Origin: Leclercia sp. S52
Lineage (GTDB): Bacteria; Pseudomonadota; Gammaproteobacteria; Enterobacterales; Enterobacteriaceae
NCBI RefSeq assembly: GCF_039727615.1
Contig: NZ_CP152474.1
Coordinates: forward strand, 2,852,001-2,916,000
DNA length: 64,000 bases
Direction of reading: 5' to 3'
Of the stretch, positions 13,032 to 63,648 are shown in pieces. Every line of letters begins with the position of its first letter. Position 1 is the stretch's first letter. Position numbers and translations under genes: made by a program. The notes beneath the pieces were generated by a model that saw only the letters and a program-made list of their open reading frames with translations, did not search any database and was not told the origin of the DNA.

Positions 13032-13989
13032 ATGACGCTACAGTCGCCTGATTTGATCAGTGAGTTGCTGCGCGGAATGCGCCTGTCGGGGGTGAAGTAC
13101 CGCCGGATTGAGGCGAGCGCGCCGTTCGGCGTGGCCTTCAGCGCGGCCGCGGGAAAAGCGCAGTTCCACTTTATCAGCCGCGGCCCGGCGGTATTACGGA
13201 TGCACAGCGGGGCGCGTTTTGCGCTGAACAGCGGCGATGCGGTATTTATCCCTAACGGTGATGCCCACGCCCTGCTCTCAGGGGATGACGCGACGGTAAC
13301 GCCGGTCTCGGCTTTTCCCAGCGAGCCGATCTGCAACAGCGTCTGCGATATTCACTGCGAGCCCTGCCCGGACAGCGATAACGTGGTGATATTTAGCGGG
13401 TGTATGGATTTCGATCTCGGCGGGATGCAGCCGCTGATCAAGGCGATGCCGGAGGTGATGATGGTCAGCCGTCTGATGACCACCTGGCCGGAGATCCATC
13501 CTCTGCTGGAGGCGATGGAGCGCGAGTCGATGACCCGTCAGGTGGGATTTGCCGGGATCCTCGCCCGGCTGGCGGACGTGGTGGCAGCCCTGATTGTCCG
13601 CGGCTGGGTCGAAGCCGGGTGCGGGAAAGCCACCGGCTGGATCCAGGTGCTGCGCGATCCGCGTCTCAGCCGGGCGATCTACGCCATGCACCAGCAGCCG
13701 GGGGGTTAACTGGAGCGTGGCGGAGCTGGCAAAGGAGGCGGGAACATCCCGGTCGGTGTTTGCCGAGCGGTTTCTCTCGGCCACCGGGACTACCCCGGCG
13801 AAATACCTGACCGAGCTGCGGATGCGGCTGGCGATCCAGTATATCGGGCAGGAGAATCAGGCGATTGAGACCGTGGCGCTGCGCCTCGGTTACGGCTCAC
13901 TGGCGGCGTTTAGCCGGGCGTTTAAGCGGATTGTCGGTCAGTCGCCGGGCGCGTTACGCGAAGCCGGTCAGACTCCACAGGAGATCTGA
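13032..13989 (+). pseudogene. AraC-family regulator with cupin domain, +1 frameshift in a G run
   Basis: The N-terminal half is a Cupin_6 ligand domain (AQFHFISRGPAVLRM, LNSGDAVFIPNGDAH, later residues on matching strands). The C-terminal half has two helix-turn-helix units with WSVAELAKEAGTSRSVFAERF and AIETVALRLGYGSLAAFSRAFKR. The frame breaks at the six G of 13700-13705: the observed reading hits TAA at 13707, while five G gives QQPGVNWSVAELA and a full protein of about 318 residues. Such regulators usually control a divergent MFS gene, as here. The break is most likely a base-calling error. Confidence 0.85.
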
Positions 13990-14005
13990 CCGGACGGATT
14001 AGCAG

Positions 14006-14755
14006 TTAAAGCCAGCTCTGCTGCGACGGTGTGCCTTCGCTGCGCTCTTCACGCGGCAGCTCGATGGTGAGCGTGGAGAGATGTTTTGACCACAGATCGG
14101 CCACCCATTTCACGCCGCGCGCGGTAAAGCGCGCCTGGGACCAGGTGTGCTGGTTTTCGCCCACGCCGCTGTGCAGCGTAAAATAGCCCGCGTCGATATG
14201 GTGCTGCGGCGGAACCAGATTGCCGCCGACGCGCTGCATGATATTGCGCTCCAGCAGGAACTCGCGGAACTGCGGCTCTTTGGCTTTCAGCATTTTACAG
14301 AGCTGACGAAAACCCATCGCCTCTTTCACTCTGACGAACTGGTCAAAAAACACCGCCTTTGGGGCCCAAAGGGCAAGCTGCTCCTCCGCCCGGTGGCATT
14401 TTTCATACTGCTCGGCCCAGGCGCGTGCCGCCGCTGCCGGATTGGTAAAGTCCGGGAGATTGGCGTTTCTCTCACGCTCCTGCCAGCGATCCAGCATGGC
14501 AGCCGTGAAGCCCGGGGAGATGCGTGAAACCGTCAGCAGGGAGTCTCGTTTGTTGAGCAAAAACTCCTGCCGCGTTTCACCTTCGCGCTCGTACAGACTG
14601 GCCGTTACCGGCTGCGAAAGACGCTGCGCTGTTTCCAGGCTCTTCACCATGCGCTTCACCTCGGTATGGGCAATACCGGTCATCTTTGCGATTTCGCGGC
14701 TGCTGATGGTGGCAAGCGGGTTATTGGACTGGAAAGTTTGAACAGGAATTACCAT
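14006..14755 (-). CDS. Orphan phage-type antirepressor with KilAC-like C-terminus
   Basis: This 249-residue protein has an N-terminal Rha-like region (ATISSREIAKMTGIAHTEVKR) that looks like a helix-turn-helix, a linker, and a C-terminal KilAC/ANT-like domain with KMLKAKEPQFREFLLERNIM and a closing segment like those that bind DNA or repressors in phage antirepressors. It lies about 18 kb from the prophage, among metabolic genes, so it is probably a leftover or free-standing cargo gene. The ATG at 14755 follows GAGGGG and is preferred over a GTG nine bases earlier. Its target is unknown. Confidence 0.75.
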   Translation of the reverse strand: MVIPVQTFQSNNPLATISSREIAKMTGIAHTEVKRMVKSLETAQRLSQPVTASLYEREGETRQEFLLNKRDSLLTVSRISPGFTAAMLDRWQERERNANLPDFTNPAAAARAWAEQYEKCHRAEEQLALWAPKAVFFDQFVRVKEAMGFRQLCKMLKAKEPQFREFLLERNIMQRVGGNLVPPQHHIDAGYFTLHSGVGENQHTWSQARFTARGVKWVADLWSKHLSTLTIELPREERSEGTPSQQSWL

Positions 14756-14884
14756 AGGTTTCACCCCTCACTCATACATTACTCGGGTAATTTGCTCTAA
14801 TAGTATACAAATACCTGTTCAAATATCCAGTATAATTTTTAAGCGTACCCCCCTGAAAAGCAGGCCACGCCTAAGTTCCCGTAA

Positions 14885-15721
14885 TCAGGACGTTTTTGGC
14901 GACGTCTTCAGGCTTTCCAGTTCACGCGCATCATGGCTACAGAAAAAAGTGATGTCGTTGGCGTGCGAACAGGAGAGCTCGCGCAGCCGCTGCTGGTTAC
15001 GACGCCGGGCATCGTTATCCATCGCCATCATCCACTGGTAAAAGCGCAGCCCGGGGGTACAGTGGCGCTGCGGCTGGCGCATCTCATCCCGGTAAAACCA
15101 GGCGTCACCCCCGTGCAGCAGCCACCCCTGCGGCTGGCGGATGGCAATCCCGGCGTGACCCGGCGTATGCCCGGCCAGCGGCACCAGCAGGATCTCCGGC
15201 GGCAGTCCGTTTAGCGCCGTTACCGCGTCGAAGCCAAACCAGCGCTCTCCCTGCACCTGATACCCCTCCCAGCCAGAGGTGGCGCTCCACTGCCCGGGGC
15301 GGTAGCGCTCCCGCTGCAGCCAGCTGTGGCGCTGCTGCGCCGTGTCGATCTCCTGCTGCATTAAGTGGATGCGCGCGTGAGGGAAGTCGGTCAGCCCGCC
15401 CGCGTGGTCGAAATCCAGATGCGTCAGAATGATATGGCGGACGTCCGCCACGCTGAAGCCCAGCGCCTCGACCCGGGCGCGTGCCGTGAGCGATTCCCGG
15501 CGCTGGATGTTATTCAGCACCCGGAAAAAGCCCGACAGCCGGGAGGGGTCACGCACGTCCCCTTGCCCGAAGCCGGTATCCACCAGCACCAGCCCGTCGC
15601 GCTCGGTTTCAATCAGCAGGCAGTGGCAGACCAGGTGCGCATGCAGCCCCTTGCTGAAACCGTCGTAAAATGCGCCGCCCAGCGGGCACATGCACCCGCA
15701 GTTAAGGTGATGGATCTTCAT
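14885..15721 (-). CDS. Metallo-beta-lactamase-fold hydrolase, lactonase-like
   Basis: This 278-residue protein has the zinc motif H-x-H-x-D-H-like THLDFDHAGGL near residue 101, plus a later GHTPGHAGI and a LLHGGDAWF segment that supply further ligands. The N-terminal MKIHHLNCGCMCPLGG is typical of an MBL subgroup that includes AiiA/AttM-like lactonases. It could open lactones, including homoserine lactones, but the substrate cannot be read from sequence. A DUF1264 lipoprotein gene ends 12 bases upstream, so the two are probably co-transcribed. Confidence 0.8.
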   Translation of the reverse strand: MKIHHLNCGCMCPLGGAFYDGFSKGLHAHLVCHCLLIETERDGLVLVDTGFGQGDVRDPSRLSGFFRVLNNIQRRESLTARARVEALGFSVADVRHIILTHLDFDHAGGLTDFPHARIHLMQQEIDTAQQRHSWLQRERYRPGQWSATSGWEGYQVQGERWFGFDAVTALNGLPPEILLVPLAGHTPGHAGIAIRQPQGWLLHGGDAWFYRDEMRQPQRHCTPGLRFYQWMMAMDNDARRRNQQRLRELSCSHANDITFFCSHDARELESLKTSPKTS

Positions 15722-62777: not shown

Positions 62778-62829
62778 TACAGATAGATATTTTTTAAGCA
62801 TGCTGAAAATGCATGCAAAAATAAAATAG

Positions 62830-62840
62830 ATATTTACTCT
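62830..62840 (+). other. Candidate attR core
   Basis: This is the second copy of ATATTTACTCT, next to the integrase. The sequence to its right leads straight to minC. A partial copy, TAGATATTT, at 62785-62793 may be an arm site. Confidence 0.65.
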
Positions 62841-62954
62841 GAATTAAGCGGGAGGGTGACTTGCCTCAATATAATTGTGACTATAACATGCCTGATACTC
62901 TTCGGAATATCACGGCGCACAGGTCGTGGTAAAAGCAAATTGAGTAAGGCCAGG

Positions 62955-63648
62955 ATGTCAAACACGCCCATCGAGCTTAAAGGCAGTAGCTTCACCTTAT
63001 CAGTGGTTCATTTGCATGAAGCAAAACCCGAGGTTATTCGTCAGGCGTTAGAAGACAAAATCGCCCAGGCGCCCGCATTTCTGAAACATGCGCCCGTGGT
63101 CATCAACGTAAGCGGCCTCGAAGCGCCGGTTAACTGGCACCATTTGCAACAGGCGGTAACCGCCACCGGCCTGCGAATTGTGGGTATCAGCGGCTGCAAA
63201 GACGCTGAACTTAAAGCCGAAATCGATCGGGCGGGTCTTCCGCTGCTGAACGAAGGCAAAGACAAAGCCCCGCGCGCAGAGCCCCCTGCCCCGCCAGAAC
63301 CCCCCTGTTACCCCTGTCACAAAAACGCGATTGATTGATCTGCCAGTGCGTTCCGGTCAGCGTATTTATGCGCCAAACTGTGACCTGATTGTGACCAACC
63401 ACGTCAGCGCGGGGGCGGAGCTGATTGCGGATGGCAATATCCATATTTATGGCTCAATGCGAGGCCGCGCGCTGGCAGGTGCCAGCGGCGATCGCGATGC
63501 GCAAATTTTTTGTACCCACCTGGAGGCGGAGCTGGTCTCCATCGCAGGTGTTTACTGGCTGAGTGATAACATCCCGGCCGAATTTTCTGGCAAAGCGGCA
63601 CGTCTGCGGCTGGCAGACAACGCTTTGACCGTTCAACCGTTGAATTGA
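62955..63648 (+). pseudogene. minC: Septum site inhibitor MinC with +1 shift in a C6 run
   Basis: MinC blocks FtsZ assembly away from midcell, with MinD and MinE. The start MSNTPIELKGSSFTLSVVHL at 62955 and the end ALTVQPLN match E. coli MinC. The frame fails at six C (63300-63305), in the linker between the FtsZ-binding N-terminal domain and the MinD-binding beta-helix. Five C gives EPPVTPVTKTRLIDLPVRSG and a product of 230 residues. Loss of MinC would give minicells, so a read error is the better explanation. Confidence 0.95.

What the first reader, a model, noticed from the sequence alone, without database searches (positions are those of the whole stretch)
13700..63305. Seven genes broken by one extra base in a G/C homopolymer
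The AraC regulator (G6, 13700-13705), cvrA (G7, 21961-21967), UmuD-like (C6, 32983-32988), SGNH enzyme (C7, 34614-34620), tail fibre (C7, 37100-37106), portal (C6, 46397-46402) and minC (C6, 63300-63305) all regain a natural full-length frame when one base is removed from the run. The shift has the same sign each time and hits host and phage genes alike. This is the mark of a base-calling bias, not of decay. The C6 run in dadA (25619-25624) is in frame, so not all runs are wrong.
Basis: seen in the sequence. Interest (0 to 1): 0.75.

Follow-up and report, generated by a model that had tools for sequence, protein, structure and literature searches.

The report
Sequencing over-counts of repeated G/C bases
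The seven 'broken' genes are almost certainly errors in a bacterial genome record, whose reads or assembly over-count stretches of the same base, and not a property of the living bacterium.

Summary
The window (a Leclercia chromosome) has 11 G/C runs of 6 or more. Eight lie in genes; seven of these sit at a frame change, the eighth (dadA) does not. Counted relatives are one base shorter at each of the seven: AraC 27/27, cvrA 26/26, portal 80/80 viral loci and 2/2 phages, minC the 4 nearest, and UmuD, SGNH and tail fibre in the single related viral contig found.
It is genome-wide. Against Leclercia sp. 29361 (92.5-94% identical), G/C runs of 4, 5 and 6 read one base long in 2/1670, 32/258 and 20/36 places, and one base short in 2 places at lengths 5-6. 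About 12% of shared genes in 800 kb look frame-broken; a control pair of genomes gives 1 against 187 whole.
It is very unlikely to be real. The eight 16S and eight 23S genes carry extra bases at like rates (8/64, 17/32), varying between copies at 8 of 12 runs; the relative's 16 copies have none. murD and pth, essential in E. coli, are split. MutS and MutL are intact.
The platform is undetermined.

The parts
13700..13705 (+). G6 run at the frame change in an AraC-family regulator gene (ORFs 13032-13709 with Cupin_6 and 13594-13989 with the HTH domain, different frames)
   Evidence: 27 of 27 aligned genus loci one base shorter
21961..21967 (+). G7 run near the 5' end of cvrA (main ORF 21950-23545, potassium/proton antiporter)
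   Evidence: E. coli CvrA matches in two frames meeting here; 26 of 26 aligned relatives one base shorter
25619..25624 (-). C6 run in dadA (ORF 24727-26046), in frame: a run that is not over-long
   Evidence: L064 has the same six bases and no aligned relative differs in length
32983..32988 (-). C6 run at the frame change in a UmuD-like prophage gene (ORF 32751-33221); label weak
   Evidence: phage records match only residues 1-71 of 156 in the rows shown; L278 one base shorter
34614..34620 (-). C7 run at the frame change in an SGNH/AlgX-like prophage gene (ORFs 33589-34692 and 34604-34954)
   Evidence: whole 454-aa relative P0001; L278, 97.4% identical over 1557 alignment columns, one base shorter at the run
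37100..37106 (-). C7 run at the frame change in a tail-fibre-like prophage gene (ORFs 37013-37552 and 35194-36975, the latter with Peptidase_S74)
   Evidence: L278 one base shorter, with other small indels nearby
46397..46402 (-). C6 run at the frame change in the prophage portal gene (ORFs 46363-47268 and 45918-46370)
   Evidence: single portal gene in CobraSix and ES18; 80 of 80 viral loci and 2 of 2 phages one base shorter
63300..63305 (+). C6 run at the frame change in minC (ORFs 62856-63338 and 63331-63648)
   Evidence: E. coli MinC matches in two frames meeting here; 4 of the 4 nearest relatives one base shorter
14848..14853 (.). C6 run between genes; the length difference from relatives depends on relative and alignment
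18751..18775 (.). two C6 runs between genes (18751-18756, 18770-18775), not alignable to the relatives tried

Best explanation
The extra bases are systematic errors of the genome record. The sequencing chemistry, base-caller or consensus step over-counts homopolymers by one base. The chance rises from about 0.1% at true length 4 to about 12% at 5 and about half at 6 for G/C, and is lower for A/T. In coding DNA this shifts the frame and gives false broken genes. Shown here: the genome-wide +1 bias in G/C runs, its dependence on run length, its presence at a like rate in rRNA genes, and its absence in the comparison genome. Inferred: that it arises in sequencing or consensus, since the reads were not available; which platform is to blame remains unknown.
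For: (1) G/C runs of 7 number 26 and 23 per 400 kb here, against 5, 8 and 5 in three stretches of two relatives; runs of 5 are not in excess. (2) Own versus G020, one-base differences in G/C runs: 74 with own longer (own run 6 or more), 1 with own shorter (own run 5 or more), in 654 kb aligned; control G020 versus G002: 1 and 0 in 236 kb. (3) Rates by true length 2/1670, 32/258, 20/36 (rRNA included). (4) C and G alike: C5 20/146, G5 12/112, C6 11/18, G6 9/18. (5) rRNA: 25 of 96 run-copies of length 5-6 too long, none short; G020 0 of 96; own copies disagree with each other at 8 of the 12 runs. rRNA and coding rates do not differ significantly (8/64 vs 24/218, p = 0.82; 17/32 vs 8/20, p = 0.40). 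(6) murD and pth split, topA split at 85%; all whole in G020. (7) MutS 875 aa and MutL 620 aa frames open. (8) All counted relatives lack the extra base at the seven sites, the 95-99% identical contig L064 among them at cvrA and minC.
Against: The genome's completeness is listed as 99.96%, which at first sight does not fit some 12% broken genes; fragments may still be scored as present. Extension is somewhat commoner outside genes (G/C5 8/38 vs 24/220, p = 0.11; G/C6 9/13 vs 11/23, p = 0.30; A/T6-7 19/131 vs 12/208, p = 0.01; with rRNA set apart, non-coding 5/24 and 5/8 vs coding 24/218 and 8/20), as selection would give, though true variation between species in non-coding DNA would too. A/T runs are less one-sided: at length 8 none of 17 is longer and 3 are shorter. 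Of the 70 broken genes 22 have no G/C run of 6 or more at the break (14 an A/T run of 6 or more, 5 a G/C run of 5, 3 none). Only 9 informative runs lie in the essential genes, 1 extended. G020 was taken as the truth; 11 of 41 own ORFs that look split in G020 do not overlap an own event. The control with identical flanks is small (G020 vs G002: G/C5 0 of 16, G/C6 0 of 2). The passages I read describe no platform with exactly this signature.
Confidence: 0.97

Rival explanations
1. The strain is a mutator: loss of mismatch repair lets homopolymers slip, and the broken genes are real recent mutations.
For: Slippage rates also climb with homopolymer length in mutS deletion lines (PMC5854121, passages read).
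Against: MutS and MutL frames are open over their full length (MutH, UvrD and DnaQ were not checked). Direction in G/C runs is almost purely +1 (52 vs 2 at G/C5-6). The same paper reports deletions commoner than insertions among wild-type indels; the passages I saw give no direction for the mutS lines. rRNA copies are hit at the ordinary rate and essential genes are split.
Confidence: 0.01
2. The longer runs are real and the frames are restored by slippage of RNA polymerase or ribosome, as described for poly(A) tracts of insect endosymbionts.
For: [quoted passage not shown] pth is also split here.
Against: There the tracts are A/T runs in AT-rich endosymbiont genomes; here they are mainly G/C runs of 6-7 in a 4.9 Mb genome of about 56% GC. 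rRNA genes are hit, differently from copy to copy at most runs. No counted relative shares the changes.
Confidence: 0.008
3. Phase-variable contingency loci: a few genes use G/C runs as on/off switches.
For: G/C tracts are used this way in some bacteria (recalled).
Against: The affected genes are of all kinds, with rRNA and cell-wall genes among them, and runs are only 6-8 long here; no counted relative has the longer run.
Confidence: 0.003
4. Ordinary gene decay (pseudogenes) in a host and a defective prophage.
For: Real pseudogenes occur in both, and some of the 22 breaks without a G/C run of 6 or more may be real.
Against: At the seven sites the aligned relatives depart by one base at the run and the genes otherwise align through it; host, phage and rRNA share one sign and one sequence context.
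Confidence: 0.01

Closest known systems
Homopolymer-length errors in single-technology genome assemblies (nanopore assemblies examined with Kastor, PMC12007338; passages read)
   Same: Short indels at homopolymers that fragment genes and are found by comparison with relatives.
   Different: There homopolymer errors are mainly deletions, most often in A/T runs; here insertions in G/C runs dominate.
454, Ion Torrent and PacBio read errors (review PMC4719071; passages read)
   Same: For 454 and Ion Torrent the indel frequency rises with homopolymer length.
   Different: The review reports average under-reporting of homopolymer length for Ion Torrent and little homopolymer bias for PacBio RS reads; here runs are over-long. 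A 454 contribution is not excluded.
Mismatch-repair mutator homopolymer slippage (PMC5854121; passages read)
   Same: Single-base changes in homopolymers that scale with length.
   Different: MutS and MutL are intact; the direction in G/C runs is one-sided; rRNA genes are not spared.
Poly(A)-tract frameshifts that may be rescued by transcriptional slippage in Blochmannia and Buchnera (PMC3017870; passages read)
   Same: Otherwise intact genes with one frame change in a homopolymer.
   Different: A/T tracts in reduced genomes; here short, mainly G/C runs genome-wide, rRNA included.

Membership tests
Systematic homopolymer-length sequencing/consensus error | Changes confined mainly to homopolymers and rising with run length | tested here: met
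   G/C4 2/1670, G/C5 32/258, G/C6 20/36; A/T5 10/847, A/T6 24/265, A/T7 7/74, but A/T8 0/17
Systematic homopolymer-length sequencing/consensus error | One direction, alike on both strands | tested here: met
   52 longer vs 2 shorter at G/C5-6; C and G runs alike; A/T less one-sided (24 vs 4 at length 6)
Systematic homopolymer-length sequencing/consensus error | Independent of function: same rate in sequences under strongest constraint | tested here: met
   rRNA 8/64 and 17/32 vs coding 24/218 and 8/20, p = 0.82 and 0.40
Systematic homopolymer-length sequencing/consensus error | Absent in independently sequenced near relatives | tested here: met
Systematic homopolymer-length sequencing/consensus error | Raw reads disagree with the consensus at the runs | not testable with these tools
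   reads not available
Mismatch-repair mutator | Inactivated mismatch repair gene | tested here: not met
   MutS 875 aa and MutL 620 aa open, no stop inside; MutH and UvrD not checked
Mismatch-repair mutator | Both insertions and deletions in runs | tested here: not met
   52 vs 2 at G/C5-6; the need for both directions is recalled
Mismatch-repair mutator | Essential genes and rRNA spared by selection | tested here: not met
   murD, pth split; rRNA hit; only 9 informative runs in essential genes
Slippage-rescued frameshifts (endosymbiont type) | A/T tracts, some frame changes shared with relatives | tested here: not met
   the seven runs are G/C of 6-7; counted relatives lack them
Slippage-rescued frameshifts (endosymbiont type) | Mixed-length transcripts | not testable with these tools
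   no RNA data
Phase-variable contingency loci | Few, mostly surface or regulatory genes with variable run length among isolates (recalled) | tested here: not met
   genes of all kinds genome-wide; no counted relative has the longer run; isolates of the same strain not available

The most novel reading that the evidence does not exclude
The strain really carries hundreds of one-base-longer G/C runs, rRNA and essential genes included, and lives by an efficient general slippage at such runs during transcription or translation.
Probability: 0.005. Interest if true: 0.95.

Novelty: not a real feature. Interest (0 to 1): 0.15.

Why it matters
It is a warning about one genome record: roughly one in eight shared genes looks broken, mostly at homopolymers, so pseudogene counts, gene-content comparisons and any reading of 'lost' functions (minC, cvrA, the prophage portal, LPS and sugar genes) from it are unreliable. 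It also shows a cheap internal test that needs no reads: compare G/C run lengths among the rRNA copies of one genome, which should be nearly identical.

Tried and rejected
Considered and rejected: decay, mutator, programmed or rescued slippage, and phase variation (see rivals). I asked whether essential genes are spared: of 76 E. coli genes that I listed as essential or nearly so from recall (rsmH and tufB on that list are doubtful), 74 were found in the stretches held; 3 are split (pth, murD, topA), none in G020. Of 9 informative runs in these genes 1 is extended, near the ordinary rate but a small sample. rplX and coaE show slightly shortened matches here (0.93, 0.96) against full ones in G020 and were not counted. 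The reverse test (own ORFs that look split in G020) gave 41, of which 30 overlap an own event. Some of the 70 breaks lie in over-extended ORF ends rather than in the gene proper, e.g. the one upstream of hns. The SGNH piece had no match among phage records. Paper searches for a platform with this exact signature gave no clear match in the listings; searches on mutators and on slippage were made; (Leclercia and PacBio) was not followed up. I read passages of four papers and saw only listings of the rest.
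Full report
What the window is. It is bases 2,852,001-2,916,000 of a closed 4.93 Mb chromosome. Its DadA is 100% identical to that of Leclercia adecarboxylata UBA3338 (L064) and 99% to that of Leclercia sp. 29361 (L065; genome handle G020). From about 32,774 to 62,823 the window holds sequence that those two lack at this place: a prophage whose head genes resemble phages ES18 and CobraSix.

The observation. All seven runs are as described. The window has 11 G/C runs of 6 or more; 8 lie in genes and 7 of those sit at a frame change. 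At each of the seven, the relatives that could be aligned and counted are one base shorter at the run: AraC 27 of 27 (29 loci given), cvrA 26 of 26 (27 given), portal 80 of 80 viral loci (the best 80 of 395) and 2 of 2 phage records, minC 4 of the 4 nearest. For minC 11 more distant rows differ by 4, 5 or 14 bases in a variable stretch and were left out. UmuD, SGNH and tail fibre were compared with the one viral contig found (L278), which is one base shorter at each. Over the SGNH gene it is 97.4% identical across 1557 alignment columns with two one-base differences, one at the run and one beyond the gene's end. At UmuD (81-83%) and tail fibre (84.9%) it is more distant, and near the tail-fibre run it has other small indels, so that site is the weakest. 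The dadA run is the same length in the aligned relatives. Whole relatives were seen for AraC and cvrA (G020), minC (E. coli), SGNH and portal; for UmuD and tail fibre I did not check full length. I mended none.

It is genome-wide. I fetched two 400-kb stretches of this genome and the matching stretches of G020, one 400-kb stretch of another same-genus genome, G002, and some smaller stretches. Counts of G/C runs of 5, 6, 7 and 8 per 400 kb are 254/53/26/2 and 245/61/23/2 here, against 333/42/5/0 and 307/42/8/2 in G020 and 250/39/5/0 in G002. Direct alignment (92.5% and 93.7% identity) shows 74 one-base differences with this genome longer in G/C runs of 6 or more and 1 with it shorter, in 654 kb; G020 against G002 shows 1 and 0 in 236 kb. 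For A/T runs the same counts are 41 longer and 8 shorter. At runs with identical flanks the excess rises with true length: 2 of 1670 (G/C4), 32 of 258 (G/C5), 20 of 36 (G/C6); for A/T, 10 of 847 (5), 24 of 265 (6), 7 of 74 (7), 0 of 17 (8). Shorter runs: 4 at G/C4, 1 at G/C5, 1 at G/C6; 3, 4, 2 and 3 at A/T5, 6, 7 and 8. The control at such runs is small: G020 against G002 gives 0 of 16 at G/C5 and 0 of 2 at G/C6. Scaled to the whole chromosome, 74 in 654 kb would be roughly 560 sites (inference).

Effect on genes. Using G020's ORFs as probes on the two 400-kb stretches, 70 genes are frame-broken here against 503 found whole; 18 are partial and 155 have no match. Using G002's ORFs on one stretch, 20 are broken here (160 whole) but 1 in G020 (187 whole). 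Of the 70 breaks 48 hold a G/C run of 6 or more, 14 an A/T run of 6 or more, 5 a G/C run of 5, 3 none; random stretches of like length hold a G/C run of 6 or more in 1.4-1.9%. Of the 70, 40 were given to a family search and 6 of those 40 had no match; the names include uhpB, waaC, xylB, thiC, malF, acnA, cysB, topA, pth, cvrA and exoX. A few breaks lie in over-extended ORF ends, as upstream of hns, rather than in the gene.

Why it is not biology. First, rRNA. All eight 16S and eight 23S genes found in this genome and in G020 were compared. Over the 12 G/C runs that are 5 or 6 long in G020, 25 of 96 run-copies are one base too long here and none too short; in G020 0 of 96 depart. The own copies disagree with one another at 8 of the 12 runs; at one all eight are longer, at three none is. 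The rates, 8 of 64 at length 5 and 17 of 32 at length 6, do not differ significantly from those in coding DNA (24 of 218 and 8 of 20; p = 0.82 and 0.40). Real insertions would not be expected to fall on rRNA as freely as on sugar-transport genes. Second, essential genes: of 74 genes essential or nearly so in E. coli (recalled) found here, pth and murD are split near the middle and topA at 85%, all whole in G020. Third, MutS and MutL are intact and the change in G/C runs is almost one-sided; in the Vibrio study wild-type indels were biased to deletions (PMC5854121, passages). Fourth, slippage rescue as in Blochmannia concerns A/T tracts in protein genes (PMC3017870, passages) and would not explain rRNA.

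What speaks against. The listed completeness of 99.96% sits oddly with so many broken genes, though gene fragments may still count as present. Extension is somewhat more frequent outside genes, significantly only for A/T (p = 0.01); natural variation between species would add to the non-coding counts. A/T runs are less one-sided, and at length 8 the few differences go the other way. The sample of informative runs in essential genes is small (9). The nanopore assemblies in PMC12007338 show mainly deletions at homopolymers, and the review PMC4719071 reports under-counting for Ion Torrent and little homopolymer bias in PacBio RS reads, so the platform behind this over-count is not identified.

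Conclusion.

Noticed in passing
window 32757-32774 and 62823-62840: The alignments on either side of the prophage overlap by 18 bases in both relatives without it, as expected for an attachment-site repeat; the insert is about 30 kb, short beside ES18 (46.9 kb).
   Followed up: no
   Followed up: no
own genome C1:2420378-2422475 (L255): A second elongation factor G gene is split into two overlapping open frames here but whole (703 aa) in G020; perhaps the same error.
   Followed up: no
own genome C1:4480087-4480485: One tuf copy has an open frame of 417 aa against 403 in G020, which may be another altered end.
   Followed up: no
own A/T runs genome-wide: A/T runs of 5-7 are also over-long more often than short (24 vs 4 at length 6), but not at 8 (0 vs 3), so the bias is not confined to G/C.
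   Followed up: partly
window 23552-23645: A short repeat between cvrA and dadX matches dozens of places in this and sister genomes, like a repetitive extragenic palindrome.
   Followed up: no
own 23S copies, E. coli position 2640: All 8 of 8 copies are one base longer at this run, against 2, 3 and 4 of 8 at the other three length-6 runs, so sequence context may affect the error rate.
   Followed up: no
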